From positions 1-64,000 of the forward strand of contig JAHDVS010000006.1 in the NCBI GenBank assembly GCA_023382435.1: a DNA stretch of 64,000 nucleotides, in the 5' to 3' direction. Positions 10,682 through 41,669 of the stretch are shown in pieces. The stretch's first letter is position 1; each line of letters begins with the position of its first letter. Below the pieces are notes generated by a model. The model was not told the origin of the DNA and searched no databases. It saw only the letters and a list, made by a program, of their open reading frames with translations. A program made the position numbers and the translations under genes. The DNA is from Thermoleophilia bacterium (GTDB lineage Bacteria; Actinomycetota; Thermoleophilia; Gaiellales; Gaiellaceae).

Positions 10682-11206
10682 ATGATCGTCGATGCCGCCA
10701 AGGCTGTGGCGCTGATCTTCGCGGCAGCGGTCGTTCAGGTGTCGTTCGTGAACGCCTTCGAGCTCGCGGAGGGCAAGGCCGACGTCGTGCTGCTCGCTCT
10801 CGTCGGGGTGGGGCTGCTCCGCGGCCCGGTCTTCGGCGCCTGCGCCGGCTTCTTCGCGGGCGTCGTGATCGACACGGCGACGTTCGGGACGCTCGGATTG
10901 ACGTCGCTGCTCCTCACCCTGACCGGCTACGGGATCGGCCGCCTCGGCGAGTCCACGAGCCACCAGCGCAACCAGCGCGCGCGGGTAGTGATCGCCGTTG
11001 CGCTCGCGACTCTCGCGCTCGAGCTCGGCTCGCTCGTCGTGCATGCCCTGCTCGGCGGGTCGGCCGCGTTCGACCAGGTCGTCGGCCGCGTGCTGGCACC
11101 GTCACTCGCCCTCAATCTCGTGCTCGCGATCCCTGGCTACGCGCTCCTGCGGCGTCTCTTCCCGCCTCCCGCACGTCCGGAGCGGGAGGTGGTGCCGGCT
11201 GTCTAG
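10682..11206 (+). CDS. mreD: Rod shape-determining protein MreD
   Basis: MreD is a small polytopic membrane protein of the elongasome. The 174-residue product starts at ATG 10682 and has about five hydrophobic spans, with the family feature LRGPVFGACAGFFAGVVID in the middle. The position between mreC and mrdA is the strongest evidence, because MreD sequences are poorly conserved. There is no good in-frame start nearer to mreC, so a 43-bp gap remains. The last codons contain a ribosome binding site (GGGAGG, 11184-11189) used by the next gene. Confidence 0.87.
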   Translation: MIVDAAKAVALIFAAAVVQVSFVNAFELAEGKADVVLLALVGVGLLRGPVFGACAGFFAGVVIDTATFGTLGLTSLLLTLTGYGIGRLGESTSHQRNQRARVVIAVALATLALELGSLVVHALLGGSAAFDQVVGRVLAPSLALNLVLAIPGYALLRRLFPPPARPEREVVPAV

Positions 11207-13211
11207 CAGCGCCTTCCTGCCGCCCGACCCGCGCGTCGAGGAGCCCTACCGGTTCACGCCCCAGCTGGCGCTCCGGGTGGCGATCGTGGGCATCGTCGCG
11301 GTCGCGCTGTTCGCGGTGCTGTTCTTCCGGCTCTGGGCGCTCCAGGTGATCTCGGGAGACGACTACCTGAAGAGCGCGCGCTCGAACCAGATTCGCGCGT
11401 TCAGAATCCAGCCGCCTCGGGGGCCGATCCTCGACCGCGACGGGGTCGCGCTCGTCACGAACGTGCCCGGCACGATCGTCCGGCTCTGGCCCGCAGACGT
11501 CCCGGACGGTCGACTCGACGAGACGGTCCGGCGTCTCTCGGAACTGCTCGACGTGCCCGAGAAGGAGCTCTGGCAGTCCGTGCGCGCCCGGGCCGGCGAC
11601 CCGCTCACGCCGGTGGTCGTGAAGACGAACGTGCACGACGCGAAGGCGAACTACCTCGACGAGCACCAGGCGGAGTTCCCCGGCGTCAGGGTCGGCCCCA
11701 CGCAGCTTCGCCGTTACGAGCTCGGGTCGTTCGCCGCCCACCTCCTCGGCTACGTCGGGGAGATCACCGAGCTCGAGCTCCGGCAGAAGGGGGAGGGGTA
11801 CGCCGGTGGCGACCGGATCGGGAAGACCGGCGTCGAGGCCGCCTACGACGACTACCTCAGGGGTCAGCCCGGCGTCGGCCAGGTCCGCGTCAACGCGCTC
11901 GGGGAGCGCACGAGCGGGCTCGTGCCGAGCAGGATGCCGCAGGCCGGCTACGCCGTCCGGCTGACGCTCGACACAGATCTCCAGGGCGCTGCCGAGGACG
12001 CGCTTCGCTGGGGCGTCCAGTTCGCGCGCGAGAACGGCAGCTGGGCCGCGAACGGCGGTGCGATCGTCGCGATGAACCCGCTCAACGGCGAGCTCCTGGC
12101 GCTCGCGTCGTACCCGACTTTCGACCCGAGCGTGTTCAGCGGTCGGCCCGATCCGAACAAGGTGCAGCAGCTCTTCGACCCGGAGGTGAGTGCCGCCGCG
12201 AACCACCCGATGCTGAACCGCGCTGTCTCGGGCCTCTACCCGGCCGGGTCGGTGTTCAAGCCCGTCACCGCGCTCGCCGCCATGTCCGAGGGGATCCTCG
12301 ACCCGTACGAGCTGATCTCGTGCGTGCCCGAGCGGATCATCGACAAGCAGAAGTTCGTCAACTGGGACCCGTACCGCAACGAGGCGATGCAGCTTCGCAC
12401 GGCGCTCTCGAACTCCTGCGACACGTACTTCTACGATGTGGCGCTGCGGTTCTACGACCTACCGCCCGAGCGGGGGAATCCCCTCCAGGACTGGGCCAAG
12501 AAGATGGGCATCGGCATCGAGACGGGGATCGACGTCGGCCCGGAGAGCGCGGGGCTTCTTCCCACGCCCGCGTGGCGCAAACGCCATTTCGACACCGCGA
12601 TCGACAGGCTCTGGTCGTCCGGCGACTCGGTGCAGCTCGCGATCGGCCAGGGCGATCTGCTCGTGACGCCGCTGCAGATGACCCGGTTCTACGCGCTGTT
12701 CGCCAATGGTGGCAAGCTCGTCGAGCCCCACCTCGTGAAATCGATCGAGCAGCCTCGCGCGGAGGGCGAGACCGGGCCGCCGGTCGTGCTGCGCACGTTC
12801 GCGGCAAAGCCGCCCCAGGGTCTCGACCTGAACCCGTCCTTCATCCAGGTGGTCAGGGAGGGGCTCTGGGACGCGACCCACGACGCGAACTACGGCACCT
12901 CGTACGGCGTCTTCGGGTTCTACGAGGTCCCGATCGCCGGCAAGACCGGGACGGCGGAGAAGTTCGTCACCTTGCCGGAGGGTTACCTCGGCACCGACCA
13001 GCCGTTTGCGCGCCTGATGGATCAGGCCTGGTGGTGTGGCTGGGGCCCGTACGAGGGGGAGTCATGGGGCGGCAAGAAGCCGCTCGTCGTGTGCGCGCTC
13101 GTCGAGAACGGCGGCCACGGCGGCGAGGTCGCTGCGCCCGTTGCCCTCCGGGTGTTCGCCGAGTACTTCGACACGCCCCTGCCGGCGATCGCGCCGCGGG
13201 AGTCCGACTGA
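11199..13211 (+). CDS. mrdA: Penicillin-binding protein 2, elongation-specific transpeptidase
   Basis: PBP2 cross-links peptidoglycan during cell elongation together with RodA. The 670-residue protein has one N-terminal membrane span (AIVGIVAVALFAVLFFRL), a pedestal domain and a transpeptidase domain. The three motifs are S351VFK with the nucleophilic serine, S404NS and K582TG. No ATG, GTG or TTG lies in frame between the mreD end and the membrane span. CTG 11199 sits 9 nt after GGGAGG and overlaps the mreD stop by 8 nt, so I take CTG as the start. The first standard in-frame start is GTG 11277, inside the membrane span, and would remove the conserved YRFTPQLAL lead-in. rodA begins in the stop codon (TGATG). 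Confidence 0.9.
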   Translation: MSSSAFLPPDPRVEEPYRFTPQLALRVAIVGIVAVALFAVLFFRLWALQVISGDDYLKSARSNQIRAFRIQPPRGPILDRDGVALVTNVPGTIVRLWPADVPDGRLDETVRRLSELLDVPEKELWQSVRARAGDPLTPVVVKTNVHDAKANYLDEHQAEFPGVRVGPTQLRRYELGSFAAHLLGYVGEITELELRQKGEGYAGGDRIGKTGVEAAYDDYLRGQPGVGQVRVNALGERTSGLVPSRMPQAGYAVRLTLDTDLQGAAEDALRWGVQFARENGSWAANGGAIVAMNPLNGELLALASYPTFDPSVFSGRPDPNKVQQLFDPEVSAAANHPMLNRAVSGLYPAGSVFKPVTALAAMSEGILDPYELISCVPERIIDKQKFVNWDPYRNEAMQLRTALSNSCDTYFYDVALRFYDLPPERGNPLQDWAKKMGIGIETGIDVGPESAGLLPTPAWRKRHFDTAIDRLWSSGDSVQLAIGQGDLLVTPLQMTRFYALFANGGKLVEPHLVKSIEQPRAEGETGPPVVLRTFAAKPPQGLDLNPSFIQVVREGLWDATHDANYGTSYGVFGFYEVPIAGKTGTAEKFVTLPEGYLGTDQPFARLMDQAWWCGWGPYEGESWGGKKPLVVCALVENGGHGGEVAAPVALRVFAEYFDTPLPAIAPRESD

Positions 13212-14401
13212 TGGCCACGGAGCCCGGGATCTGGCACGCCCGCAGCCGGCGTCGCCGGCCGCAGGCGGGCGCGGACGTGGGTCACTTCCTGCGCAGCCTC
13301 GACTACGTGCTCCTCGCGGCGACGACCGGGCTCGTCGCATACGGCCTCTGGGTGATCCGTGCGATCACCGGCGACGACGTGGCCGCCGACCCGTCCTACT
13401 ACTTCGTGCGCCAGTCGATCTACGTCGGCGTCGGCGTCGCCGCCCTCGTCGGGGCCACCCTGGTGAGCCCGGACCTGTTGCGCCGCTACCGGCACGTCCT
13501 GTTCGGTGCGACGCTCGCTCTCATGATCGTCGTGTTCGTGCTCGGCTCGGCCGTCCGTGGCTCGCGCAGGTGGATCGACCTCGGCTCGTTTCAATTCCAG
13601 CCGTCCGAGATCGGCAAGCTCGCGTTGATCGTCTTCGTCGCGGGGTTCCTCGCGGAGCGCGCCAAACGGATCGACCAGGCCGGAACCGTGCTCTCGGCGA
13701 TCGGGCTCGCGATGGTGCCCGTGCTGCTCGTCTTCTTCGAGCCGGACTTCGGCACCGCGCTCGTCTACTTGGCGGCGACCGTGAGCGTCCTGTTCTTCGC
13801 CGGCGTCCGGTTCGGTCACCTCGCCTCGCTCGGGGTTGCGGCCGCCGGCCTCGCGGTCGCTCTCCTGTGGGGTCTGCCGGCGGCGGGAATCCAGGTGTTG
13901 CGGCCCTACCAGATCGACCGGCTCGTGGGCTTCCTCGACCCGGATTCCGACCCCAGCGGCAGCACCTACAACATCACCCAGTCGATCACCGCCGTCGGCG
14001 CCGGCGGCCTCGACGGGCGGGGTGTCGCCGGCGCCACCCAGACCAACCTGAACTACCTGCCCGAGCATGCGACCGACTTCGTCTTCGCGTCGCTCGCCGA
14101 GCAGCGCGGCTTCCTCGGGGCCTCGATCCTGCTGCTCCTGTACGCGCTCGTCGTGTGGCGCGGGATCAAGGTCGTCGCGGTCGCGCACAGTCTGTTCTCG
14201 GCGTCGGTCGCCGGCGCGATCGTGGGGGCGTTTCTGTTCCAGATCTTCCTGAACGTCGGCATGACGATCGGGATCGCCCCGATCACCGGCATCCCGCTTC
14301 CGTTCATCAGCTACGGGGGCAGCTCGATGATCACGTCCCTGGCCATGATCGGCATGCTTCAGGCCATCCATGCCCGTGGTCGTCTGGCGGGGAACCGGTG
14401 A
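13211..14401 (+). CDS. rodA: RodA, SEDS peptidoglycan glycosyltransferase
   Basis: RodA polymerises lipid II into glycan strands and works as a pair with PBP2. The 396-residue polytopic membrane protein has about ten spans and the SEDS family hallmarks: RWIDLGSFQFQPSEIGKLAL, EPDFGTAL, the catalytic-loop block LPEHATDFVFA and ISYGGSSMI near the end. It starts at ATG 13211, sharing one base with the mrdA stop, so the two partners are translationally coupled. The family also includes FtsW, but the context with mreBCD and PBP2 makes this RodA. Confidence 0.95.
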   Translation: MATEPGIWHARSRRRRPQAGADVGHFLRSLDYVLLAATTGLVAYGLWVIRAITGDDVAADPSYYFVRQSIYVGVGVAALVGATLVSPDLLRRYRHVLFGATLALMIVVFVLGSAVRGSRRWIDLGSFQFQPSEIGKLALIVFVAGFLAERAKRIDQAGTVLSAIGLAMVPVLLVFFEPDFGTALVYLAATVSVLFFAGVRFGHLASLGVAAAGLAVALLWGLPAAGIQVLRPYQIDRLVGFLDPDSDPSGSTYNITQSITAVGAGGLDGRGVAGATQTNLNYLPEHATDFVFASLAEQRGFLGASILLLLYALVVWRGIKVVAVAHSLFSASVAGAIVGAFLFQIFLNVGMTIGIAPITGIPLPFISYGGSSMITSLAMIGMLQAIHARGRLAGNR

Positions 14402-15228
14402 GCGGGGACAGCGCAGCGCTTCTGCGGGTGGCCGCGAGCCTGCCGCGCCAGGTACGTGACGCTCAGGCGACCCGGCCGGGCCCGCTGCTCGTCTCGGGAC
14501 CGCCGTCGGCCACCCGCGCGCTCGTCCAGGGCCTCACCCGGGACGGCGGGCCCGGGCTCGTGCTCGAGCTCGGCAGCGGTGGCGATTCGCGTGCTCTTGC
14601 GGGCGCCAGCGCCCTCGTGCACGTCGTGCGCGGCTCGCTCACGCCGACCGACGAGGCTTTGCTCCGCGCCGCCGACCGCCGGCGAGTCCCGCTCGTGTGC
14701 CTGCTGCTCGGGGAGGCGGCGCCCCCGGCGCGCGTGCTGCCGTACGTCCGGGCGACCGACGTCATCCGGGCGAGCGAGCTCGACGAGGCCGCAATCGGCG
14801 CGGTCGCGCGGGCCGTCGCCGGGCGGGCGGCGGACCTCGCCTGGGCGCTTGCCGCCGATCTGCCGGTTCTCGCCGGCCCCGCGGCCCGGGCACTCGTCCG
14901 GCGCACGGCGATCCGCAGTGCGTTGACGGTGGCGTTCCCGCGTGAGGGCCCCGACCTCCCCGTGCTCGCCAGCAGCCAGCTCGGTCTCGTGGCGAGGCTG
15001 GCGACCGCGTCTGCACTGGAGCCGGCCCGTGTTCAGGTGCCGGCCCTCGCCGGGGTCGCGGGAGTCGCTCTCGCGCTCCGCGCGATCGTCCGGCGCGCCG
15101 GCGCCGGACCCGGACTCTCCGGGCAGGCGCTGCGCAGCGGCGCCGCCTTCGCGGGGACGGCGGCGATCGGCGGTGCCATGATCCTCTGGCTCGAGCGGTC
15201 GGGGGGCCGCAGCCGGGGCCGCTGGTAG
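14398..15228 (+). CDS. Degenerate GTPase-like protein with a DUF697-type membrane domain
   Basis: The function is unknown. The 276-residue product starts at GTG 14398, overlapping the rodA stop (GTGA). The first half resembles a Ras-like GTPase that has lost its motifs: the P-loop position reads LLVSGPPSATRAL with no GKS, and the place of NKxD reads LVCLLLGE, while the strand-helix rhythm (ALVHVVRGSLTPTDEALLRA) is kept. The second half (FPREGPDLPVLASSQLGLVA, later FAGTAAIGGAMILWLE) looks like DUF697, found in YcjF and GTPase-linked membrane proteins. The tight coupling to rodA suggests a role at the elongation machinery; this is inference. Confidence 0.6.
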   Translation: MSGDSAALLRVAASLPRQVRDAQATRPGPLLVSGPPSATRALVQGLTRDGGPGLVLELGSGGDSRALAGASALVHVVRGSLTPTDEALLRAADRRRVPLVCLLLGEAAPPARVLPYVRATDVIRASELDEAAIGAVARAVAGRAADLAWALAADLPVLAGPAARALVRRTAIRSALTVAFPREGPDLPVLASSQLGLVARLATASALEPARVQVPALAGVAGVALALRAIVRRAGAGPGLSGQALRSGAAFAGTAAIGGAMILWLERSGGRSRGRW

Positions 15229-15370
15229 GCTTCGAGTAGGAATCCGAGAGCACCGGCCCGGATCGGGCGAGCGGGATCTCGGTCGAAGATGACGGACGCC
15301 ACCGCGAAACGCAGCACGATCCACTGGATGTTTCCGCTGCTCCGGACGCGTGGCGCACGAGGAGGACTAG

Positions 15371-18142
15371 GTGCTGCGAGTGTTTCGCCGCAAGGCGCAA
15401 ACGGACGAGCAGGCGCCCGCGCAGGCAGCCGCTCAGGAAACGAACGAGCAAGGCGGCGCTACCGCCGCGGAGGACAGCGGGGCGAAAGCTGAGAAGCCCA
15501 CCGCCGCGCGCTCGCGCGGCGGACGGAGCACGAGGAGACAGCCGGCGGACGGGGCCGCGAAGGCGCCGGCACGCGGTACGAAGGCCGCCGCCAAGGCGCC
15601 GGCGTCGAGGGCCGCGGAGAAGCAGGCGACGGAGAAGAAGCCCACCCGTGCCCGGCGGCGCACGCCGACGTCCCGGACCGCGTCGCTGCCGAAGGTGCGC
15701 AAGGAGATGCTGATCGACTACGACGTCGGCGAGCAGCGGGTTGCGGTCCTCGAGGACGGCCAGCCGGTCGAGGTCTACCTCGAGCGGCCGGGACGGCGCT
15801 CGATCGCCGGCAACGTCTACAAGGGGGCCGTCGTCAACGTGCTTCCAGGAATGGAGGCCTCCTTCGTCGAGATCGGTCTCGAGAAGCATGGCTTCCTCTA
15901 CGTGGACGAGATCGTCGTGCCGGAGCTCGAGGGCAAGCGTCACGGCCGACGCATCCAGGACCTCGTCTCTCGCGGGCAGGAAGTGCTCGTCCAGGCGGTC
16001 AAGGATCCGATGGGCACGAAGGGCGCCCGCCTGACCACCGAGATCTCCCTGCCCGGCCGCTTCCTCGTCTACACGCCCTTCGGGGACGGGATCGGCGTCT
16101 CGCGCCGGCTCGAAGACGAGGAGCGCGAGCGACTGAAGGGGCTGTGCCGTGGGCTCGAGCTGCCCGAGGGCGGCATCATCGTGCGTACCGCCGCGGAGGG
16201 CGCGTCCGAGGCGGAGCTGGCGGGAGACCTCGCGCTCCTGCGCAAGCTGTGGCTGACGATCCAGGGCCGCGCGGAGCGCTCGAAGGCGCCCGCGCTCGTG
16301 TACCGGGAGGCGGAGCTGCCGCTGCGAGTCGTACGGGACGTGTTCCGAAGCGATTTCGAGCGGCTCGCGATCGACCACGAGCGCACGTACCGCCGCATCG
16401 TCAGCTACCTCAAGCGGACATCGCCGGACCTCGCCGAGCGCGTCGAGTGGTACCGCGACCGGGAGCCGCTGATGGAGCGCTCCGGGGTCGACGCGGCCGT
16501 CCGCTCGACGCTGAATCGCCGGGTCGATCTCCCCTCGGGCGGCTACCTGATCTTCGACTACGCGGAGGCGTTCACGGTCATCGACGTGAACACCGGCCGC
16601 TTCGTCGGCGGGCGCGGGAAGTCATCCACCGGGAGGCTCGAGGACACGATCACGAAGAACAACCTCGAGGCGGCGAAGGAGATCGTCCGGCAGCTGCGGC
16701 TCCGGGACATCGGCGGGATCATCGTCATCGACTTCATCGACATGGCGAACCCGAAAAACCGTCAGAACGTCGAGGACGCGCTCAAGCTCGAGCTCGAACG
16801 CGATCGCACGAAGACGTACGTCGTCGAGATCTCACCGCTCGGGCTTGTCGAGATGACGCGACAGAACGTCACGGACGGGCCGCGCGAGATCCTCACCGAG
16901 CGCTGCGGCACGTGCGGGGGCGACGGCATCGTGGTCTCCGACGAGACGCACGCGGTGAAAGCGGAGCGGGCCCTGGGGCGTCTCGCCGCCGACGCGACGG
17001 GAGAGGCGCTGCTCGTCGAGCTGCCGGCGCGCGTCGCGGGCCTGCTGATCGGCGCCGGCGGCTCTCGCCTCGCCGAGATCGAGAAGGAGACCGGGAAGCT
17101 GTTCGCGTTCGAGGCCCGGGACGACGTTTCGCTCGACCACGTGAAGCTGCTGCGGGAGGGCTCGGCGACCGCGATCGAGGGCGTGCTGCCCGTGGCCGCA
17201 GGTGCGGAGCTCGAGCTCGAGCTGCTCGAGCGGCGACTCCACCACCCCGAGGACGCGATCGGACGCCTCGACGGCTACGTGGTCGCTGTCGCGGGCGCAG
17301 CGGCACAGATCGGGAGCACCGTCCGCGTGCGGGTCGAGCGCGCTACCCGCACGGTCGCCTACGCGACGCTGACAGGTGCCGTGACCGCCGCGGAGGCGCC
17401 GCTCGAGCTCGGTGCGGTCGCCGAGGACGAGGCGGACGAGACGGTGGCCGCGAAGAAGGCGGCGCCGCGCCGCCGCAAGCCGGCCGCGCCGAAGCAGCCC
17501 CCGGGCGGTCCGGACGAGGCCGCCGCGGAGGAGACTGCCCCGAAGAAGCCGGCACCGCGCCGCCGCAAGCCGGCGGCGGCCGAGTCGCAGGAGGAGAAGG
17601 TCGAGGAGACCACCGGGACGGAGGCGAGCGCCGGGGAGGCCGAGCAGGGCGGGGAGGGGCCGAAGAAGCGCACCCGCCGAGGCACCCGTGGCGGGCGTGG
17701 GCGTAAGCGGCCGGCTTCCGCCGCCGCCGCCTCGACCGAGGACGGCGAGGACGTCACCGGGGATTTGCCTCCCGCGGTCGAGCCGGACCTCGCGGGCGAG
17801 GCCGAGCCCGCGCCGGATGGGGCAGCCGCGCCGAGGAAGCGCACACGTCGCGGCACCCGGGGCGGGAAAGGGCGCAAGAAGTCCACGGCTGCGGTCGTGG
17901 ACGGCGACGAGGCGGTCCAGGAGGCCGCGGCCGTCGGCGCGGACGGCGGCCTTGACGAGGAGCCCGAGCTGTCCGTGTTCGAGCACGTCGCGGGCGGCGA
18001 GCCGCCGGACGGCGAGGCGGCCGCGAAGAAGCGCACGCGCCGCGGGACGCGGGGCGGCCGAGGGCGCAAGCGGCCCGAGCCGGCCGGCGACGGGAACGGC
18101 GTTGTTGTCGAACCGGTTGCCGAGGGCGTCGAGCCCGGCTAG
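15371..18142 (+). CDS. rng: Ribonuclease E/G with basic RNA-binding-like tails
   Basis: RNase E/G cleaves single-stranded RNA in rRNA maturation and mRNA decay. The 923-residue protein has a disordered Ala/Lys/Arg-rich N-terminal extension of about 110 residues, then the S1 domain (VYKGAVVNVLPGMEASFVEI), the catalytic DNase I-like region with Asp405 (IDVNTGR) and Asp454 (VIDFIDM), and the zinc link ERCGTCGGDG. A tail of about 250 residues follows, with three KKRTRRGTRGG-type repeats between acidic Ala/Glu linkers. It starts at GTG 15371 after an aggagg ribosome binding site. It leads the conserved rng-rplU-rpmA-obgE order. A 142-bp leader region precedes it with no other feature. Confidence 0.94.
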   Translation: MLRVFRRKAQTDEQAPAQAAAQETNEQGGATAAEDSGAKAEKPTAARSRGGRSTRRQPADGAAKAPARGTKAAAKAPASRAAEKQATEKKPTRARRRTPTSRTASLPKVRKEMLIDYDVGEQRVAVLEDGQPVEVYLERPGRRSIAGNVYKGAVVNVLPGMEASFVEIGLEKHGFLYVDEIVVPELEGKRHGRRIQDLVSRGQEVLVQAVKDPMGTKGARLTTEISLPGRFLVYTPFGDGIGVSRRLEDEERERLKGLCRGLELPEGGIIVRTAAEGASEAELAGDLALLRKLWLTIQGRAERSKAPALVYREAELPLRVVRDVFRSDFERLAIDHERTYRRIVSYLKRTSPDLAERVEWYRDREPLMERSGVDAAVRSTLNRRVDLPSGGYLIFDYAEAFTVIDVNTGRFVGGRGKSSTGRLEDTITKNNLEAAKEIVRQLRLRDIGGIIVIDFIDMANPKNRQNVEDALKLELERDRTKTYVVEISPLGLVEMTRQNVTDGPREILTERCGTCGGDGIVVSDETHAVKAERALGRLAADATGEALLVELPARVAGLLIGAGGSRLAEIEKETGKLFAFEARDDVSLDHVKLLREGSATAIEGVLPVAAGAELELELLERRLHHPEDAIGRLDGYVVAVAGAAAQIGSTVRVRVERATRTVAYATLTGAVTAAEAPLELGAVAEDEADETVAAKKAAPRRRKPAAPKQPPGGPDEAAAEETAPKKPAPRRRKPAAAESQEEKVEETTGTEASAGEAEQGGEGPKKRTRRGTRGGRGRKRPASAAAASTEDGEDVTGDLPPAVEPDLAGEAEPAPDGAAAPRKRTRRGTRGGKGRKKSTAAVVDGDEAVQEAAAVGADGGLDEEPELSVFEHVAGGEPPDGEAAAKKRTRRGTRGGRGRKRPEPAGDGNGVVVEPVAEGVEPG
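17663..18073 (+). repeat. Three basic GRG-type repeats in the RNase E/G tail
   Basis: Three copies of a 16-residue element (consensus KKRTRRGTRGGRGRKR) start at 17663, 17834 and 18026, corresponding to residues 765, 822 and 886. Acidic, Ala-rich linkers of about 40-48 residues separate them. Shorter APRRRKPAA motifs precede them twice near 17460-17580. Such Arg/Gly blocks are typical RNA-binding or condensate-forming segments. Confidence 0.85.
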
Positions 18143-18172: not shown

Positions 18173-18196
18173 TCTTCTCACGCTGGGAGCCATGCA

Positions 18197-18586: not shown

Positions 18587-18590
18587 GACA

Positions 18591-20075: not shown

Positions 20076-20683
20076 CCGGTCTGCTGGGCGGTGCCTTCGA
20101 CCCGCCCCACAATGGTCATCTCGTGCTCGCCGACGAGGCGACCCGCCGCTTCCGGCTCGAGCGGCTGGTGGTCGTGGTCACCGGGGTTGCCCCGCACAAG
20201 GAGGTGGAGACCGACCCGGAGACGCGCTACGGGCTCGCGGTCGCCGCCTTCGCGGGCCGGCCCGGCGTCGAGGTGTCCCGCCACGAGCTCGACCGACCGG
20301 GCCCGTCGTACACGGTCGACACGGCGCGCTGGGCCGCGGATCGGTACGGGGACGCCATCTTCCTCGTGGGCGCGGACGAGCTCGCGAGCTTCCTCGACTG
20401 GAAGGATCCGGACGAGGTGCTGCGCCGCGTGCGGCTCGGCGTCGCCACGAGGCCCGGCTACCCGCGCGAGCTGCTCGACCCGGTGCTCGCGCGGCTCGAA
20501 CGTCCGGATCGGGTCGAGCTGTTCGAGATCCCCGAGCTGCCGATTTCCTCGACCGGGATCCGCGAGCGAGTCGCGCGCGGGCTCGCGATCGACGGGCTCG
20601 TTCCGCCCGCCGTGGCCGCGCTGATCGTGACGCGCGGCCTCTACCGACAGCTTGACCCGTGTCCGCCCGGGTCGCTAGGCTGA
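20072..20683 (+). CDS. nadD: Nicotinate-nucleotide adenylyltransferase
   Basis: NadD joins ATP and nicotinate mononucleotide to make deamido-NAD. The 203-residue protein begins TGLLGGAFDPPHNGHL, containing the nucleotidyltransferase GxFxPxHxGH motif, and has LPISSTGIRERVARG, the ISSTxIR ATP-binding signature, near the C-terminus. The start is GTG 20072, overlapping the obgE stop by 4 nt. rsfS follows after 31 bp, as in many bacteria where nadD and rsfS form an operon. Confidence 0.95.
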   Translation: MTGLLGGAFDPPHNGHLVLADEATRRFRLERLVVVVTGVAPHKEVETDPETRYGLAVAAFAGRPGVEVSRHELDRPGPSYTVDTARWAADRYGDAIFLVGADELASFLDWKDPDEVLRRVRLGVATRPGYPRELLDPVLARLERPDRVELFEIPELPISSTGIRERVARGLAIDGLVPPAVAALIVTRGLYRQLDPCPPGSLG

Positions 20684-20714
20684 GCCGGGAACCTCCGAGG
20701 AGACACGAACCGCC

Positions 20715-21068
20715 CTGACGCCGCTCGAGCTGGCCCGCCGAATCGCCCACCTTGCCGGGGAGAAGCTCGCGCAGGACGTGGTCATCCTCGACATGCGCCC
20801 GGCCGTCGCCTACACGGACTTCTTCGTCGTCTGCACCGGCCGCAACCCCCGTCAGGTGGCTGCGATCTACGAGGAGGTGCGGGAGGCCGTGAAGCGCGAG
20901 ACAGGCGTCGTGCCACGCCACGTGGCCGGCGAACGGGAGTCGACCTGGGTTCTCGCCGACTACCTCGACGTCGTCCTGCACGTGTTCACGCCCGACGCGC
21001 GCGGCTACTACCGGCTCGAGGAGCTCTGGGGCGACCTGCCGTCGGTCGAGGTCGCCGCCGGCGTGTAG
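20715..21068 (+). CDS. rsfS: Ribosomal silencing factor RsfS
   Basis: RsfS binds L14 and blocks subunit joining when nutrients are low. The full product is 117 residues (TPLELARRIAHLAGEKLAQD, then VVILDMRPAVAYTDFFVVCT), with the family YTDFFVV core and a C-terminal YRLEELW block. The nearest standard start, GTG 20778, would remove the whole first helix. No ATG, GTG or TTG lies upstream in frame, but CTG 20715 does, 11 nt after a gaggaga ribosome binding site (20697-20703). I therefore call a CTG start. A TAGGCT hexamer at 20676-20681 could serve as a local promoter. Confidence 0.9.
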   Translation: MTPLELARRIAHLAGEKLAQDVVILDMRPAVAYTDFFVVCTGRNPRQVAAIYEEVREAVKRETGVVPRHVAGERESTWVLADYLDVVLHVFTPDARGYYRLEELWGDLPSVEVAAGV

Positions 21069-32829: not shown

Positions 32830-34457
32830 GTGGCGGGGCCCGAACCGGTCGAGGAGCCCGCCGGGGAGGAGACGGCCTCGGCCCACCACCGACGCCTCGC
32901 TCGCTCGACGGCCGTGTTCGCGCTCGCCACCGGTGGCTCCCGCGTGCTCGGGCTCGTGCGCGAGATCGTCGTGCGACGCTACTTCGGCGTCGAGGGCTCG
33001 ATCAACGTGTTCACGGTCGCGTTCCAGGTGCCGAACCTGATCCGCGCGCTCGTCGCCGACGCCGCGCTCTCCTCCGCGTTCGTGCCGGTCTTCAGCGAGC
33101 TGCTCGAGAAGGGGCAGCGGGCGCGCGCCTGGCGCGTCGCCTCGAGCGTCTTCTTCCTGCTCCTGCTCGCGCTGACCGCGCTGACGGCGTTGTTCGTCCT
33201 GCTCGCCCCCTGGGTGATGCGACCGTTCGGCTACGAGGACGATCAGCAGGACCTCGCGGTCGGGCTCTCGCGCGTGCTCTTCCCGATCGTCGCGCTGCTC
33301 GGCGCCTCCGGCGTGATCGTCGGGATCCTGAACAGCTACGAGCGCTTCACCGTGCCGGCGCTGACGCCGATCTTCTGGAACCTCGCGATCATCGCCGCCC
33401 TCGTCGTCGGCGTCCCCCAGGCCGGCAGCGACACCTCGAAGCTCTACGTGTACGCGGGCGGCGTGCTCGCCGGCACCGTGATCCAGGTGCTCTTGCCGGT
33501 GCCGTGGCTCGCGCGTCTCGACGGCAGCCTGCGCGTCGCGCTCGACTGGCGCGACCCGGCCGTACGGCGCGTGTTCGTGCTGATGCTTCCGGTCGCGCTC
33601 GGGCTCGGGCTGATCAACTTCAACCTCGTCGTCGACACGTTCTTCGCCGCCCGCTTCCTCGACCCGCAGCTCGCGCCGAGCGCGATCGACGCCGCTTTTC
33701 GCATCTACATGCTCCCGCAGGGGATCTTCTCCGTCGCGATCGCGACCGTGCTCTTCCCGTCCCTCTCGCGCCTCGCCGCCAGGGGCGACAGCGACGGCTT
33801 CCTCGAGACCGTCTCGCTCGGCGTCCGCCAGATCGGCTTCATGCTCGTCCCGGCCAGCGCGATCGGGGCGGCGCTCTCGATCCCGATCGTGCGCGTCCTG
33901 TACGAGCGCGGCGCCTTCGGGGCGGAGGAGACTACGGTCGTCGGCCACGCCCTCGCCGCGTTCCTGATCGGGCTCACGTTCAACGGGATGATGCTGATGC
34001 TGAACCGGGCGTTCTTCAGCCTCCAGGCACCGTGGGTGCCGACGTGGGTCGCGCTCGGGAACCTGTTCGTGAACGCCGGGCTCGACTTCGCGTTCTACCG
34101 GCTCGGGATCTGGGGGCTGCCGCTCGCGACCGCGGTCGTCAACATCGTCGCCTCCGTCGCCCTGTTCGCGATCCTGCGCCGGCGCCTCGGCCGGCTCGAC
34201 TCGCGCGCGATCGCCGGCTCCTACGCGCGGATCGTGCCGGTCGCGGCCGCCGCCGCCGGCGTCGCCTGGGGCGTCTACGCCGCCCTCGACGGGCCGCTGG
34301 GGAGAGCGTTCGGGCCGCAGGTCGTCGCCGTCGGAGCGGCCGTCGCCGCCGCCGCGCTCGCGTACCTGGTTCTGGCCCGTTTGCTGGGGATTCGCGAGCT
34401 CGGGGCGTTGCTATCGTTGGTCGGCCGCTCCGGCACGCGATCCGGCGGCCACCCCGC

Positions 34458-34461
<4 letters not shown>
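32830..34461 (+). CDS. murJ: Lipid II flippase MurJ
   Basis: MurJ moves lipid II across the membrane for peptidoglycan synthesis. The 543-residue polytopic protein belongs to the MOP/MviN superfamily with about 14 spans. After a short acidic N-terminal extension comes the conserved [20 protein letters not shown], then FVPVFSELL and [11 protein letters not shown]. The start is GTG 32830 behind a TATACT element. It replaces other genes usually between rpsT and lepA and is coupled to lepA by an ATGA overlap. Confidence 0.93.
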
Positions 34462-36244
<1,783 letters not shown>

Positions 36245-36248
<4 letters not shown>

Positions 36249-37369
36249 CCGCGGTCTCGCACCTCTACGTCCACGTCCCGTTCTGCGCGCACCGGTGCGG
36301 CTACTGCGACTTCGTCACGGTCTCCGGTCGCCGCGGCCAGCACGAGGCCTACGTGGACGCGCTGCTCGCCGAGCTCGAGCTCGAGCGCAGCCGGCTGGCG
36401 GCCGCTCTCGACACCGTCTACCTGGGCGGGGGGACGCCGACGTTCGCGGAGCCCCGACCGCTCGAGCGGCTGCTCCGCTCGCTGCCCCCGGCGGCGGAGG
36501 TGACCGTCGAGGCGAACCCGGAGACGGTCACGCCGGCACTCGTCGCGCTGCTCCGGCGGGTGGGCGTCACGCGTGTCTCGCTGGGCGCCCAGAGCTTCGA
36601 GCCGCGCCTGCTCGCGGTGCTCGAGCGCCGCGCGGGCGCCGACGACGTCCGCCGCGCGTTCGCTCGCCTTCGCGACGGCGGCTTCGACAACGTCTCGCTC
36701 GACCTCCTCTACGGGATCCCGGGCCAGAGCGCCGCCGATCTCGAGCGCGACCTGGGCTGCGCGCTCGCGCTCGCACCCGAGCACGTGTCCTGCTACGAGC
36801 TCGAGGCGAAGCCCGGGACGCGCTTCACGCACGCCCACGGGGCTGAGCTGGCACGGCAGGCTGACTCGACGGAGGGCTATTTCGAGCTCGTCGTCGAGAC
36901 GCTGACCGCGGCCGGCTACCGCTGGTACGAGACCTCGAGCTTCTGCCTGGACGGTCGGCGCTCGCGCCACAACCTCGCGACGTGGCTGGGCCGCGACTAC
37001 CTCGGCCTCGGGGTCGGCGCCGTCTCCACGGTCGCAGGCCTGCGCTGGCGCAACCGCCCCGGGCTGGCCGCCTACCTGCGGTCGCTCGACGCCGGCCGGC
37101 TTCCTCCGCGCGAGCTCGAGCCGATCAGCCAGGTCACCCGCCGCGTCGAGCGCCTGATGCTCGGGCTACGCCTCGACGAGCCGCTCCGGCTGGCCGACGT
37201 CGAAGGCGCCTACGACGCGGGCGCGCTCGCCCGGCTCGAGCGCCTCGGCCTGCTCGAGCGGCTCGGCGACCGGGTTCGCCTGACCGCCCGCGGGCGCTTC
37301 CTCGGCGGCGGCGCGACCGTCGAGTTGCTCGCGGAAATGCCTGCAAATGAGCTTGTTGTATCGGGGTGA
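36245..37369 (+). CDS. hemW: Radical SAM heme chaperone HemW
   Basis: HemW is a coproporphyrinogen oxidase-like radical SAM protein that binds heme and a [4Fe-4S] cluster. The 374-residue protein has the CxxxCxxC motif as [11 protein letters not shown], then [15 protein letters not shown] and the HemN-like C-terminal domain. CGYCD rather than a second N-terminal cysteine argues for HemW over HemN. The SRHNLATW segment replaces the more usual SxHNxxYW. The start is GTG 36245 within the lepA stop. It ends 18 bp before hrcA. Confidence 0.92.
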
Positions 37370-37384
37370 TCGGCTAGCATCACC
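37353..37384 (+). promoter_or_regulatory. hrcA promoter with an embedded inverted repeat
   Basis: TTGTTG (37353-37358), a 16-bp spacer and TAGCAT (37375-37380) form a good -35/-10 pair, and ATG 37388 follows after 7 nt. GGTGAT (37365-37370) and ATCACC (37379-37384) make a 6-bp inverted repeat with an 8-bp centre right across the -10. It is not the CIRCE sequence usually bound by HrcA, but its place suggests an operator. Confidence 0.55.
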
Positions 37385-37387
37385 GGT

Positions 37388-38428
37388 ATGGAGCCCGGGA
37401 CGCAGGATCTGACCGACCGGCAGCGCGCAATCCTCGAGTACGTCGTCGAGGACTACGTCGCCGCCGGCCAGCCCGTCGGGTCGAAGGCGCTCGCGAGCCG
37501 CCGGCGGATGCGGATCTCCGCCTCGACCGTGCGCTACGAGCTCGCGGAGCTCGAGGAGCGCGGGCTGCTCAGCCACCCGCACACGTCCGCCGGGCGGGTC
37601 CCGACCGATCTCGGCTACCGCGTCTACGTCGACCGGTTGCTCGGAACGCTCGAGCCGAGGACGACCGAGCTGACGCTCGACCTGTCCGCCGCCAGCCGGG
37701 AGGTCGACGTGGCGCTCCAGACCACCACCGACGCGCTCGCCCACGTCACGCACCTGCTCGCGCTCGTGACGGCGCCGCCGCTCGAGGCGACGATCGTGCG
37801 CCACGTCGAGGTGCTGATGCTCCAGCCGCGGGCGGTCGTCTGTGTGGTGATCACGTCGAGCGGCGACGTGTCGAAGCGGATCGCCACATTCGACGAGCCC
37901 GTCGATCCGGGGCTGGCCGAGTGGGCGCGCGAGTACCTGAACGAGCAGGTCGCAGGCCTCGCGCTCGGCGCCCGCTTGCTTCGGAACCGCTTCGGCGACC
38001 CCGGCCTCTCCCCGCGCGAGCGTGAATTCCTGGCCGCGCTCGAGCCCGCGTTCGCGGAGCTCGTCGAGCGGGGGGAGCGCGACGTGTACGTGGGCGGCGC
38101 CGCCGGCGTGATGGACGAGTTCCCCGCCGACGACATCGGCGCGTTCCGCAGCCTGCTCGAGGCGCTCGAACGCCGCGCCGCCCTGCTCGAGCTGACACGG
38201 GCAAGGCTCGCGGCCCGCAGGCCGTTCGTTCGCGTCGGATCCGAGCTCGACGACCCGGCGTTCGCGAGGGTCTCCCTGGTCGGCGCACCGTACGGGCTCA
38301 GCCGTCGCAACCTCGGCACCGTCAGCCTGATCGGCCCGACGCGAATGGATTACGGCAAGGCGATCGGGGCGGTCAGGGCGGCCGCGCTCGAGCTGTCCCG
38401 GTTCGTCGAGGGCCTCTACGACGAGTGA
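37388..38428 (+). CDS. hrcA: Heat-inducible transcription repressor HrcA
   Basis: HrcA represses chaperone genes and is inactivated on heat shock. The 346-residue protein has a winged-helix N-terminus (DLTDRQRAILEYVVEDYVAA, then SASTVRYELAELEERGLLSH, HTSAGRVPTDLGYR) and the C-terminal domain ending RRNLGTVSLIGPTRMDYGKA. The start is ATG 37388, 7 nt after a TAGCAT -10. It is followed by dnaJ, but no grpE or dnaK is present; in actinobacteria an hrcA-dnaJ pair away from dnaK is common. The operator may be the inverted repeat at its own promoter. Confidence 0.94.
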   Translation: MEPGTQDLTDRQRAILEYVVEDYVAAGQPVGSKALASRRRMRISASTVRYELAELEERGLLSHPHTSAGRVPTDLGYRVYVDRLLGTLEPRTTELTLDLSAASREVDVALQTTTDALAHVTHLLALVTAPPLEATIVRHVEVLMLQPRAVVCVVITSSGDVSKRIATFDEPVDPGLAEWAREYLNEQVAGLALGARLLRNRFGDPGLSPREREFLAALEPAFAELVERGERDVYVGGAAGVMDEFPADDIGAFRSLLEALERRAALLELTRARLAARRPFVRVGSELDDPAFARVSLVGAPYGLSRRNLGTVSLIGPTRMDYGKAIGAVRAAALELSRFVEGLYDE

Positions 38429-38450
38429 CTCGGGGCTCCGGGGCCGGCGC

Positions 38451-38456
38451 TACCCT
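38451..38456 (+). promoter_or_regulatory. -10 element of dnaJ (leaderless geometry)
   Basis: TACCCT ends 8 nt before ATG 38465. It suggests dnaJ has its own start in addition to read-through from hrcA. Confidence 0.45.
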
Positions 38457-38464
38457 GGTCCGCG

Positions 38465-39589
38465 ATGGCGACGACGAAGCGCGACTACTACGAGATCCTC
38501 GGCGTCCCCCGCGACGCCGACGAGCGGGCGATCAAGAAAGCGTTCCGGACGCTCGCGCGTGAGCTGCACCCGGACGTGTCGGAGGCGTCCGACGCGGAGG
38601 AGCGGTTCCGCGAGCTGGCGGAGGCGTACGAGGTGCTGTCCAAGCCGGAGGCCCGCGAGCTCTACGATCGCTACGGGCACGAGGGGCTGCAAACGGGTGG
38701 CTTCCGGCCGGGCTCCTTCGATTTCGCGAATCTCTCCGACCTGTTCTCCGCCTTCTTCGGGGACGAGCTGTTCGGCGGCGGGCAGGCGCGGCGGCGAGGC
38801 AGGCAGCGCGGCGGGGACGTCGCCGTCGAGGTCGAGGTCGATCTCGTCGACGTGGCCCGGGGAGTGGCCCGCGAGGTGCCGCTGACCGTGGCCGTCGCGT
38901 GCGCCGCGTGCGGCGGCAGCGGCGCGGCGGCCGGATCCGCACCCGAGACCTGTCCGGGCTGCGCCGGCGCCGGGCGCGTTCAGCAGGTAGCGAGCACCGT
39001 ATTCGGGCAGATCGTGCGAGCCCAGGCGTGCCCCCGTTGTCGCGGCGCCGGCACGATCATCGCCGAGCCCTGCCCCGCCTGTGACGGCGACGGGCGTGTT
39101 CCCGAGCAGCGAACGCTCGAGGTACGGATCCCCGCGGGCATCCATGACGGCCAGCGCATCCGTCTGTCCGGGGAGGGGCACGCGGGCGACCGCGGGAGTC
39201 GCCCCGGCGATGCCTACGTCGTCGTGCGCGTCCGCCCCGACGAGCGGCTCGCCCGTGACGGCGACGACATCGTGTCGGCAGTCCAGCTGACGATCACCCA
39301 GGCGGCCCTCGGGTGTCGTGTCACGGTTCCGACGATCGACGGCGAGCTGGAGCTCGAGTTCAAGCCGGGGACGCAGCCGGGCGAGGTGCGGGTGCTTCGC
39401 GGCAAGGGGCTTCCCGCGCTCCAGGGCTTCGGCCGGGGCAACCACCGTCTCCTCGTCGGCGTGGTGGTGCCCCACCGGCTCACCGACGAGCAGAGGCGCC
39501 TGCTCGAGGAGTTCGAACGCCTCTCCGGGGAGCGCACGTACGCCCCCGACGAGGGGTTCTTCGAGCGCGTCAGGGCCGCGTTCCACTGA
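38465..39589 (+). CDS. dnaJ: Chaperone DnaJ (DnaJ2-type)
   Basis: DnaJ stimulates DnaK and delivers substrates. The 374-residue protein has a J domain with H35PD, a very short Gly/Phe segment (GGFRPGSFDF), and four zinc motifs: CAACGGSG, CPGCAGAG, CPRCRGAG and CPACDGDG. The C-terminal substrate domains follow. The position next to hrcA and away from dnaK fits the DnaJ2 paralogue of actinobacteria. The stop overlaps the prmA start as CTGA. Confidence 0.94.
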   Translation: MATTKRDYYEILGVPRDADERAIKKAFRTLARELHPDVSEASDAEERFRELAEAYEVLSKPEARELYDRYGHEGLQTGGFRPGSFDFANLSDLFSAFFGDELFGGGQARRRGRQRGGDVAVEVEVDLVDVARGVAREVPLTVAVACAACGGSGAAAGSAPETCPGCAGAGRVQQVASTVFGQIVRAQACPRCRGAGTIIAEPCPACDGDGRVPEQRTLEVRIPAGIHDGQRIRLSGEGHAGDRGSRPGDAYVVVRVRPDERLARDGDDIVSAVQLTITQAALGCRVTVPTIDGELELEFKPGTQPGEVRVLRGKGLPALQGFGRGNHRLLVGVVVPHRLTDEQRRLLEEFERLSGERTYAPDEGFFERVRAAFH

Positions 39590-40374
39590 GCGGCGCGGGA
39601 CGGCTCCGGCGCGCCGCGATCCGCGTCGACGCGCGGGACGCCGAGGAGGCCCGCGCGCTCCTGCTCGCGCTCTGCCCGGCCGGCTTCGAGGAGCTCGAGC
39701 TGCCGGGTCGAGTCGAGCTCGCCGCTTACGTCGACGCCGCCGGGGAGGCGCGGCTCACCCGCGCGTTTCCGCAGGCCGCCGGCAGCAACGTGCCGGAGGG
39801 CTGGGAGGACGCGTGGCGGGCGTTCCACCGGCCGGTCCGCGCCGGCCCGCTCTGGATCGGGCCGCCCTGGGAGCGACCCGATCCGGGTGCGCTGGCCGTC
39901 GTGATCGACCCCGGCCAGGCATTCGGGACGGGGGCGCACGCGACGACCCGCCTCTGTCTCGAGCTTCTCGCCGAGCAGGGGCGCGGCAGCCTGCTCGACC
40001 TCGGCTGCGGCTCGGGCGTGCTCGCGATCGCCGCCGTCAGGCTCGGGTTCGGCCCGGTGGTCGCGCTCGACGACGACCCCGCCGCTGTCGAGGCCGCCCG
40101 CGCGAACGCGCGCGCGAACGGCGTCGACGTCCAGATCCGGCTCGCCGACTGCCTGCGCGAACCGCTGCCGGACACGGCCGTCGCCGTCGCCAACATCGGC
40201 GCCACCGCCGTCAGTCCGCTCGCGAGCCGCGTGCCCGCGCCGCGCCTGATCGCGTCGGGCTACCTCGCCGCCGACCGCATCGAGACACCGGGCCGCCGCA
40301 GCGTCGAGCGGCGCGAGCTCGACGAGTGGGCCGCGGACGTGCTCGAGCGGCCGGCTGCCCGACGACGATCGTGA
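39586..40374 (+). CDS. prmA: Ribosomal protein L11 methyltransferase (PrmA-like)
   Basis: PrmA methylates ribosomal protein L11 using S-adenosylmethionine. The product has an N-terminal ferredoxin-like domain (AIRVDARDAEEARALLLALC) and a Rossmann methyltransferase domain with FGTGAHATTRL, motif I DLGCGSGVLAIAAV and the VANIGA motif. To include the N-terminal domain the frame must open at CTG 39586, which overlaps the dnaJ stop as CTGA; no ATG, GTG or TTG exists there, and the first alternative lies about 68 codons in. The length is 262 residues, slightly short for the family. It sits between dnaJ and mtaB as in Firmicutes. Confidence 0.85.
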   Translation: MSGAGRLRRAAIRVDARDAEEARALLLALCPAGFEELELPGRVELAAYVDAAGEARLTRAFPQAAGSNVPEGWEDAWRAFHRPVRAGPLWIGPPWERPDPGALAVVIDPGQAFGTGAHATTRLCLELLAEQGRGSLLDLGCGSGVLAIAAVRLGFGPVVALDDDPAAVEAARANARANGVDVQIRLADCLREPLPDTAVAVANIGATAVSPLASRVPAPRLIASGYLAADRIETPGRRSVERRELDEWAADVLERPAARRRS

Positions 40375-40431
40375 AGGTCTCCGTGCGCTCGAGCTTCTCG
40401 CTCTTGCAGGCGCAGCGCTGCGATCAGTCCC

Positions 40432-40447
40432 GTCACCCCCCCGTGAC
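40432..40447 (+). terminator. Small hairpin between prmA and mtaB
   Basis: GTCAC, loop of six C, GTGAC form a 5-bp stem 57 bp after prmA. It may end the hrcA-dnaJ-prmA transcript before the mtaB promoter. It is short and has no T-run. Confidence 0.3.
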
Positions 40448-40468
40448 CTCCCGTGGGCGGCGCGCTTA

Positions 40469-40474
40469 TAGCAT
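40469..40474 (+). promoter_or_regulatory. -10 element of mtaB (leaderless geometry)
   Basis: TAGCAT, the same hexamer as at hrcA, ends 7 nt before GTG 40482. The ATG at 40473 overlaps the hexamer, and I treat it as a by-product of the -10 followed by G. Confidence 0.55.
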
Positions 40475-40481
40475 GTCTCGC

Positions 40482-41669
40482 GTGGCGACGTTCAGCGCCC
40501 GCTTCCTCGGCTGCAAGGTCTCCCACGCCGACGTGCAGGAGGTCCGCGAGCGCCTGCTCGCGGACGGCCATCTCGAGGCGGAGCGGTCGGAGGTCGCCGT
40601 GATCGGCACGTGCTGCGTCACCCGGGAGGCGGTCGCGAAGTCCCGCAAGGCGGCGCGGCGGGCGGCCGGGAGCGCCCGGCGCGTCTACCTGACGGGCTGC
40701 GCCGCCAGCCTGCCCGGCGCTTTCGACGGCCTGCCCGGGAACGTCGAGGTCGTCGCCCTCCCGAGCGAGCGGACGCCCGGGTTCGTCGCCGGGCGGCTGG
40801 GTGCGCTCGGCTGCGCGACGGCCGGCGCCGGTCTCGACCGGGTTCGCGCCTTCGTGAAGGTGCAGGATGGCTGCGGCTTCGCCTGCTCGTTCTGCGTGAT
40901 CCCGAGCGTGCGCGGCGGCCCGCGCAGCCGCCCCGCAGCCCGGGTGCTTGCCGAGATCCGCCGCCGGGTCGGGCAGGGACATCGCGAGGTCGTTCTGACC
41001 GGGATCAATCTCGGCTGCTACCGCGACCGCGAGGCCGCGCTCGACCTCGCCGGGCTCGTGCGCGCTGCCGGAGCGACGCCGGGGCTCGCGCGGCTGCGGC
41101 TCTCGTCCGTCGAGGTCAACCACGTAACGCCAGCGCTGCTCGCCGCGCTGCGGGAGACAGGGGCGGCCTCGCCGCACCTGCACGTGCCGCTCCAGTCCGG
41201 GGACGACGGCGTTCTGCGGGCGATGCGCCGGCGCTACACCGCCGCCACGTTCCTGCGCCGGCTCGAGCTCGCGGACCGCTTCAACGTGACGACCGACGTG
41301 ATCGTCGGCTTCCCCGGCGAGGACGAGGCGGCGTTCGAGCGGACGCTCGCGGTCGTCGAGCTTGCCGGGATCACGCGGGCGCACGTGTTCCCGTACTCGC
41401 CCAGGCCCGGCACGGGGACCGCGGGGCTCGACCCCGTTCCCGCCGCCGTCAAGCGCGAGCGCGGCTCGCGGCTGCGCGCGGCCGTCCGGGAGGCCAGGCT
41501 GGCGGCCTGGGCGCGCAAGCTCGGCAGCGAAGACACGGTCCTCGTCGACCGGCCCGGCCGGGGCTACGGCGACGATTACTCGCCCTGGCTCGTCGAGGGC
41601 CGGCCCGTCGGCGCGTTCGTGGCGGTACGGGCCGGCGCGGTCACGGAGGAGGGGATCCTCGCTGCCTGA
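40482..41669 (+). CDS. mtaB: tRNA methylthiotransferase MtaB-like
   Basis: MtaB adds a methylthio group to t6A37 of tRNAs, using radical SAM chemistry and two iron-sulfur clusters. The 395-residue product has the N-terminal UPF0004 domain (FLGCKVSHADVQEVRERL, GTCCVT, LTGCAA), the radical SAM motif CGFACSFCVIP and the LHVPLQSGDD and DVIVGFPGE blocks. A C-terminal TRAM-like part seems short. I use GTG 40482 rather than ATG 40473 because of the TAGCAT element. It may equally be another member of the MiaB family. Confidence 0.9.
   Translation: MATFSARFLGCKVSHADVQEVRERLLADGHLEAERSEVAVIGTCCVTREAVAKSRKAARRAAGSARRVYLTGCAASLPGAFDGLPGNVEVVALPSERTPGFVAGRLGALGCATAGAGLDRVRAFVKVQDGCGFACSFCVIPSVRGGPRSRPAARVLAEIRRRVGQGHREVVLTGINLGCYRDREAALDLAGLVRAAGATPGLARLRLSSVEVNHVTPALLAALRETGAASPHLHVPLQSGDDGVLRAMRRRYTAATFLRRLELADRFNVTTDVIVGFPGEDEAAFERTLAVVELAGITRAHVFPYSPRPGTGTAGLDPVPAAVKRERGSRLRAAVREARLAAWARKLGSEDTVLVDRPGRGYGDDYSPWLVEGRPVGAFVAVRAGAVTEEGILAA

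What the first reader, a model, noticed from the sequence alone, without database searches (positions are those of the whole stretch)
11184..41664. Four genes that can only be read full length from CTG start codons
mrdA (CTG 11199), rsfS (CTG 20715), prmA (CTG 39586) and the HIT gene (CTG 41662) have no ATG, GTG or TTG that keeps the conserved N-terminus. In three cases a purine-rich ribosome binding site lies 7-11 nt upstream. In prmA the CTG overlaps the previous stop as CTGA, parallel to the ATGA and GTGA overlaps seen throughout the window. CTG initiation is rare in characterised bacteria. Four cases among about 60 genes suggests this lineage uses CTG routinely and that its annotated proteomes have systematically truncated N-termini.
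Basis: partly seen in the sequence, partly recalled or inferred. Interest (0 to 1): 0.8.

Follow-up and report, generated by a model that had tools for sequence, protein, structure and literature searches.

The report
Conserved CTG start codons in Gaiellaceae
In this family of soil and sediment bacteria a few core genes begin with the codon CTG, which bacteria almost never use to start proteins, and in at least two genes this rare start, or the equally weak TTG, has been kept across about 70 genomes and never replaced by the normal ATG or GTG.

Summary
mrdA, rsfS, prmA and the HIT gene have no ATG, GTG or TTG near their conserved N-termini, and a CTG sits at the right place. Orthologues from the same family (Gaiellaceae, Thermoleophilia) show that the CTG is the start. 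rsfS has CTG in 53 and TTG in 14 of 67 genomes. prmA has CTG in 27 of 30. mrdA and HIT alternate CTG, TTG, GTG and ATG at the same site. In rsfS, codon-periodic conservation begins exactly at the CTG, and some relatives have an in-frame stop 2-3 codons upstream.

'Routine' use is overstated: a 2 Mb census suggests about 1% of genes. Three of the four naive ORFs would be over-extended rather than truncated. Beyond the window, purL has CTG in 55 and TTG in 14 of 69 family genomes, 6-7 nt after a -10 box, so it is probably leaderless. Sampled outgroups use ATG or GTG. The initiator tRNA looks normal.

Best reading: ordinary fMet-tRNA initiates weakly at CTG, helped by stop/start overlap (mrdA, prmA, HIT), a Shine-Dalgarno sequence (rsfS) or a leaderless 5' end (purL). 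In rsfS and purL a weak start appears to be maintained. No protein data exist.

The parts
11199..13211 (+). mrdA (PBP2) read from CTG 11199
   Evidence: TIGR03423 pbp2_mrdA over its cut-off; FLPPDPRV..TPQLALR conserved in 30 relatives
11199..11206 (+). CTGTCTAG: mrdA start overlapping mreD stop by 8 nt; relatives have TTG/GTG/ATG/CTG at the same overlap
11184..11189 (+). GGGAGG, Shine-Dalgarno-like, 9 nt before CTG
20715..21068 (+). rsfS (ribosome silencing factor) read from CTG 20715
   Evidence: PF02410 and TIGR00090 over cut-off; 53 CTG / 14 TTG / 0 ATG or GTG in 67 family loci
20697..20702 (+). GAGGAG, Shine-Dalgarno-like, 12 nt before the rsfS CTG; distance 10-14 nt in nearly all CTG relatives where one was found
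20652..20681 (+). rsfS promoter-like elements TTGACC (20652-20657) and TAGGCT (20676-20681), 18-nt spacer; -10 ends 33 nt before CTG, as in CTG relatives (27-42 nt in nearly all)
   Evidence: consensus match only
39586..40374 (+). prmA (L11 methyltransferase) read from CTG 39586
   Evidence: PF06325 over cut-off; CTG in 27, TTG in 2, GTG in 1 of 30 relatives
39586..39589 (+). CTGA: prmA start overlapping dnaJ stop by 4 nt
41662..42000 (+). HIT-family gene read from CTG 41662
   Evidence: PF01230 over cut-off; aligned start CTG 14, TTG 9, GTG 4, ATG 3 in 30 relatives
41662..41669 (+). CTGCCTGA: HIT start overlapping the stop of the upstream gene by 8 nt
41645..41654 (+). GGAGGAGGGG, Shine-Dalgarno-like, 7 nt before CTG

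Best explanation
The four CTGs are genuine translation start codons. They are read (inferred) by the ordinary initiator tRNA with anticodon CAU through a first-position mismatch, and are expected to give low initiation rates. Context compensates. In prmA, HIT and mrdA the CTG overlaps the stop codon of the preceding gene, so translational coupling probably places the ribosome (overlap shown, coupling inferred). rsfS has its own promoter-like elements, a short leader and a Shine-Dalgarno sequence 10-14 nt upstream (sequence shown, function inferred). CTG is the ancestral rsfS start in Gaiellaceae and has changed only to TTG, never to ATG or GTG. purL, outside the window, shows the same CTG/TTG-only pattern in a probably leaderless mRNA. 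So rsfS and purL appear to be under selection for a weak start codon, whereas mrdA and HIT drift among all four NTG codons.
For: rsfS: 53 CTG, 14 TTG, 0 ATG/GTG in 67 family loci; nucleotide entropy is about 1.6-2 bits at most upstream positions, falls to 0.74/0/0 at the CTG, and is codon-periodic downstream; in-frame stops 2-3 codons upstream in four relatives; at least four independent changes between CTG and TTG on the rsfS tree; Solirubrobacteraceae relatives mostly have ATG or GTG at or near this site. prmA: CTG 27, TTG 2, GTG 1 of 30. mrdA: TTG 14, CTG 5, GTG 5, ATG 2 of 26; HIT: CTG 14, TTG 9, GTG 4, ATG 3 of 30, at the same site. purL: CTG 55, TTG 14, none ATG/GTG of 69; a TANNNT box ends 6-7 nt before the CTG in 48 of 55; outgroup families have ATG or GTG. 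Zero ATG/GTG in rsfS or purL differs from 14 of 56 in mrdA+HIT (Fisher about 6e-6 and 5e-6, phylogeny ignored). Initiator tRNA has CAT and GGG/CCC in the anticodon stem; IF3 is present.
Against: No peptide, ribosome-profiling or transcription-start data. Nearly all genomes are metagenome-assembled. The Shine-Dalgarno spacing of rsfS is longer than the best-enriched spacing in this family. For prmA the C is also the third base of the dnaJ last codon (CGC or CAC), so selection for CTG itself is not shown there. Translational coupling, leaderless transcription and low initiation rate are inferred.
Confidence: 0.85

Rival explanations
1. Translation really starts at a canonical ATG/GTG/TTG upstream or downstream, and the CTG is an internal or untranslated leucine codon.
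For: Canonical codons exist at GTG 11277 (mrdA), GTG 41680 (HIT), GTG 20778 (rsfS), and far upstream for mrdA, prmA and HIT.
Against: In relatives with CTG an in-frame stop lies 2-3 codons upstream (rsfS L152, L181; mrdA L006, L008, L016). Downstream candidates cut conserved sequence. An internal leucine should also show CTC, CTT and CTA, but 67 of 67 rsfS codons are CTG or TTG. For purL many genomes have no ATG/GTG/TTG from the upstream stop until 50-75 codons in.
Confidence: 0.05
2. The CTG in overlapping junctions is a by-product of the upstream gene's last codon and TGA stop; it is tolerated because coupled ribosomes restart by position, not by codon.
For: CTGA is fairly common where no other start is near (22 CTGA among 268 sole-candidate junctions; 27 observed versus about 15 expected from noise, p about 0.001). 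recF has CTC in one and CTA in one relative at the overlap site.
Against: Does not apply to rsfS or purL. For prmA a synonymous CGG would give GTG, yet CGC is kept in 23 of 30. recF keeps CTG in relatives where it no longer overlaps the dnaN stop.
Confidence: 0.35
3. Sequencing or assembly errors, or decaying genes, removed the true starts.
For: The window is from a metagenome-assembled genome.
Against: The same CTG recurs in dozens of independently assembled genomes from different projects, including the single-contig genome KatS3mg012. All four reading frames are open and conserved.
Confidence: 0.02
4. The lineage has a changed decoding apparatus (initiator tRNA with another anticodon, or relaxed IF3) that makes CTG a standard start.
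For: CTG use of about 1% is far above the 0.024% quoted for bacteria (PMC11497404).
Against: The initiator tRNA found in this genome has CAT and the usual GGG/CCC stem. ATG and GTG still make up most starts. IF3 fidelity residues were not compared.
Confidence: 0.07

Closest known systems
sigR of Streptomyces (GTC start, repressed by IF3; PMC5472188)
   Same: A non-canonical start codon conserved across a bacterial group (32 of 34 Streptomyces) and thought to keep expression low.
   Different: CTG instead of GTC; several core genes instead of one; conserved across a family of 34 genera; IF3 control not tested here.
infC (ATT in E. coli, ATC in Streptomyces; described in PMC5472188)
   Same: Conserved weak start codon in a translation-related gene.
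   Different: Autoregulation by IF3 is proven there. In this genome infC itself appears to start with TTG.
CUG initiation in enterobacteria (4 CUG starts among novel N-terminal proteoforms in Salmonella, PMC11005335; CUG 0.86% of AUG efficiency and 0.024% of bacterial starts, PMC11497404)
   Same: Same codon, same initiator tRNA expected.
   Different: There CUG mostly gives alternative proteoforms; here it is the only start of conserved core genes.
Leaderless initiation in mycobacteria (PMC4633059)
   Same: -10 box directly before the start codon, no leader.
   Different: CTG and TTG did not work at the leaderless position in mycobacteria, and CTG was not enriched even with a Shine-Dalgarno sequence. 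Gaiellaceae purL uses only CTG or TTG.

Membership tests
Genes with a near-cognate (non ATG/GTG/TTG) start codon | No ATG/GTG/TTG can serve as start without losing conserved N-terminal sequence | tested here: met
Genes with a near-cognate (non ATG/GTG/TTG) start codon | Orthologues have a start codon at the aligned position and conservation begins there | tested here: met
Genes with a near-cognate (non ATG/GTG/TTG) start codon | Mature protein begins with (f)Met encoded by that codon | not testable with these tools
   needs N-terminal proteomics
IF3-regulated starts (infC, sigR type) | Codon conserved as non-canonical across the group | tested here: inconclusive
   rsfS 53 CTG + 14 TTG of 67, purL 55 CTG + 14 TTG of 69; CTG is the majority, but TTG counts as canonical for IF3
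IF3-regulated starts (infC, sigR type) | Expression rises when IF3 fidelity is impaired | not testable with these tools
   genetic experiment
Translationally coupled overlapping genes | Start codon overlaps the upstream stop codon | tested here: met
   mrdA 8 nt, prmA 4 nt, HIT 8 nt; not rsfS
Translationally coupled overlapping genes | Downstream translation depends on upstream termination | not testable with these tools
   reporter experiment
Leaderless genes (purL, some rsfS) | -10 box directly upstream of the start codon | tested here: met
   purL CTG: 48 of 55 at 6-7 nt; rsfS TTG: 10 of 14 at 8 nt; rsfS CTG: about 27-42 nt, so leadered
Leaderless genes (purL, some rsfS) | Transcript 5' end is the start codon | not testable with these tools
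   needs transcription start mapping

The most novel reading that the evidence does not exclude
In a lineage rich in leaderless mRNAs the first base of the start codon can also be the first base of the transcript. purL (purine synthesis) and rsfS (ribosome silencing in starvation) keep a pyrimidine-first start codon (CTG or TTG) in every genome examined. They may do so either so that their transcription does not depend on the ATP/GTP pool, or so that their translation stays weak and IF3-sensitive. Either way the start codon would act as a conserved nutrient-linked control element. The leadered CTG form of rsfS speaks against the first version for that gene.
Probability: 0.12. Interest if true: 0.88.

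Novelty: new variant of a known kind. Interest (0 to 1): 0.64.

Why it matters
CUG is quoted as 0.024% of bacterial start codons with under 1% of AUG efficiency, and reporter tests in mycobacteria found it unusable. A bacterial family in which core genes have kept CTG (or TTG) starts across dozens of genera gives a natural system for asking when CUG initiation works, and whether a weak start codon is itself selected. It also means that gene callers limited to ATG, GTG and TTG will misplace N-termini, in both directions, in Gaiellaceae genomes.

Tried and rejected
A first codon-usage gene finder trained on the longest ORFs picked wrong frames in this GC-rich DNA; it was retrained on homology-verified regions. 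Two unsupervised EM models for start-codon frequencies were too noisy to give a reliable CTG rate, with control codons such as CTC scoring similarly in one genome, so the ~1% figure rests on hand-curated start-less genes and the stop/start junction counts. An idea that the conserved CTGA of rsfS ends a short upstream reading frame was rejected: that frame is closed within a few codons in several relatives. recF looked like a further conserved CTG gene, but CTC and CTA in two relatives make it less secure. The initiator tRNA is not altered. Baudet 2010 on Deinococcus deserti, a precedent I know of from memory, is not held.
Full report
WHAT WAS CLAIMED AND WHAT IS THERE. The four CTG codons are at the stated places. 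mrdA starts at CTG 11199 in CTGTCTAG, an 8-nt overlap with the mreD stop, with GGGAGG 9 nt upstream. rsfS starts at CTG 20715, with GAGGAG 12 nt upstream. prmA starts at CTG 39586 as CTGA over the dnaJ stop, and the HIT gene at CTG 41662 in CTGCCTGA with GGAGGAGGGG 7 nt upstream. An ATG/GTG/TTG-only ORF list gives 737 aa from TTG 10998 for mrdA, 353 aa from GTG 39313 for prmA, 212 aa from TTG 41362 for HIT, and 96 aa from GTG 20778 for rsfS. Such a caller would therefore over-extend three and truncate one. A codon-usage model that ignores start codons places the beginning of coding within 6 codons of each CTG.

WHERE IT COMES FROM. The window is contig 6 of a 2.73-Mb metagenome-assembled genome, with 102 relatives held in the same family. 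Named records among the closest rsfS matches include Gaiellaceae bacterium KatS3mg012, Gaiella sp. FR_16 and Candidatus Gaiellasilicea, so I call the family Gaiellaceae.

COMPARATIVE TEST. For each gene 30 family loci were fetched and aligned at the start. rsfS, extended to 67 family loci: CTG 53, TTG 14, no ATG or GTG. prmA: CTG 27, TTG 2, GTG 1. mrdA (26 resolvable): TTG 14, CTG 5, GTG 5, ATG 2. HIT: CTG 14, TTG 9, GTG 4, ATG 3. In rsfS the nucleotide entropy is about 1.6-2 bits at most positions of the ten upstream codons (lower near the Shine-Dalgarno). It falls to 0.74/0/0 at the start codon and shows protein-type periodicity from there on. Several relatives have an in-frame stop just upstream: 2 or 3 codons before the CTG in rsfS L152 and L181, and 3 codons in mrdA L006, L008 and L016. 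No upstream start is possible in those genomes, and an internal leucine would not be restricted to CTG and TTG. Solirubrobacteraceae relatives mostly have ATG or GTG at or near the rsfS site. On the rsfS protein tree the CTG/TTG label needs at least four changes, so CTG appears ancestral in the family and has changed only to TTG.

CONTEXTS. Three of the four window genes are stop/start overlaps. In this family 4-nt overlaps are the main type of gene junction: 565 of 790 TGA junctions are in that frame. Where no other start is near, the overlap codon is GTGA 155, ATGA 83, CTGA 22, TTGA 8. Noise in start-less genes explains about 15 of 27 CTGA cases, so there is an excess but not a large one. 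rsfS differs: it has promoter-like elements, and the -10 box ends about 27-42 nt before a CTG start in nearly all CTG relatives but 8 nt before most TTG starts. CTG relatives are thus leadered and most TTG relatives look leaderless.

BEYOND THE WINDOW. A census of 464 kb of this genome, 1.2 Mb of KatS3mg012 and 0.4 Mb of FR_16 turned up further genes with no canonical start: truB and gmk here; purL, maf, ymdB, recF, a permease and others in KatS3mg012; purL and a EutN/CcmL gene in FR_16. That is roughly 1% of genes by hand curation, an estimate and not a measured rate. purL is the most striking. In 69 family genomes the start is CTG in 55 and TTG in 14, never ATG or GTG at the aligned site; six of them have an ATG or GTG a few codons upstream. 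A TANNNT box ends 6 or 7 nt before the CTG in 48 of 55. That is the spacing at which this family's ATG and GTG starts show their own strong -10 enrichment (166 of 866 and 183 of 1207, against about 15 expected each), whereas CTG as a class shows none. So purL is probably a leaderless gene with a CUG start. This genome's own purL has TTG (L364). Families outside Gaiellaceae have ATG or GTG, often overlapping an upstream stop. recF has CTG in 26 of 30, but CTC and CTA in two others.

DECODING APPARATUS. The initiator tRNA has anticodon CAT and the normal GGG/CCC anticodon stem. One IF3 gene is present. Nothing suggests a changed code.

MECHANISM. Shown: positions, conservation, overlaps, -10 and Shine-Dalgarno placement. 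Inferred: initiation with fMet by the ordinary initiator tRNA, low efficiency, coupling, leaderless transcription. The absence of ATG and GTG in rsfS (0 of 67) and purL (0 of 69) contrasts with 14 of 56 in mrdA plus HIT. This suggests that a weak start is maintained in rsfS and purL and merely tolerated in the others; phylogenetic dependence is not corrected in that test.

COMPARISON WITH WHAT IS KNOWN. CUG is quoted at 0.024% of bacterial start codons and 0.86% of AUG efficiency (PMC11497404). Switches to CUG were 2 of 61,358 AUG starts in a 36-group survey (PMC5622118). In mycobacteria CTG failed as a leaderless start and was not enriched even with a Shine-Dalgarno sequence (PMC4633059). Conserved non-canonical starts exist: sigR with GTC in 32 of 34 Streptomyces, repressed by IF3, and infC with ATT or ATC (PMC5472188). 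Four CUG starts were among novel Salmonella proteoforms (PMC11005335). The finding is therefore a new variant of a known kind: the codon is listed as possible in NCBI table 11, but its family-wide retention in core genes, and its use in what looks like a leaderless gene, I did not find described in the searches made.

Noticed in passing
window 58957-59596: coaE follows the polA stop (TAG 58957-58959) with no ATG, GTG, TTG or CTG before its P-loop; its start codon is unknown. Family positions were found but the DNA could not be fetched.
   Followed up: partly
L364 and L304-L403: purL of Gaiellaceae: CTG or TTG start, mostly 6-7 nt after a -10 box, in 69 genomes, never ATG/GTG at the aligned site; outgroups use ATG/GTG.
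   Followed up: yes
sampled contigs of G000, G039, G046: About 15-19% of ATG and GTG codons near a coding boundary have a TANNNT box 5-9 nt upstream (about 15 expected each), so leaderless mRNAs are probably very common in this family.
   Followed up: partly
L303:2045-2034 (minus strand): infC of this genome appears to start with TTG overlapping the stop of a tiny reading frame ATG GTG CTT TGA.
   Followed up: no
G000 C7 minus-strand PIN-domain gene and C9 isochorismatase-like gene: Between the upstream in-frame stop and the conserved N-terminus the plausible start in each is ATC.
   Followed up: no
L193, L160, L208: Very divergent rsfS in L193; record titles of L160 (Acidobacteriota) and L208 (Bifidobacterium breve) look misassigned, since their rsfS resembles Thermoleophilia.
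   Followed up: no
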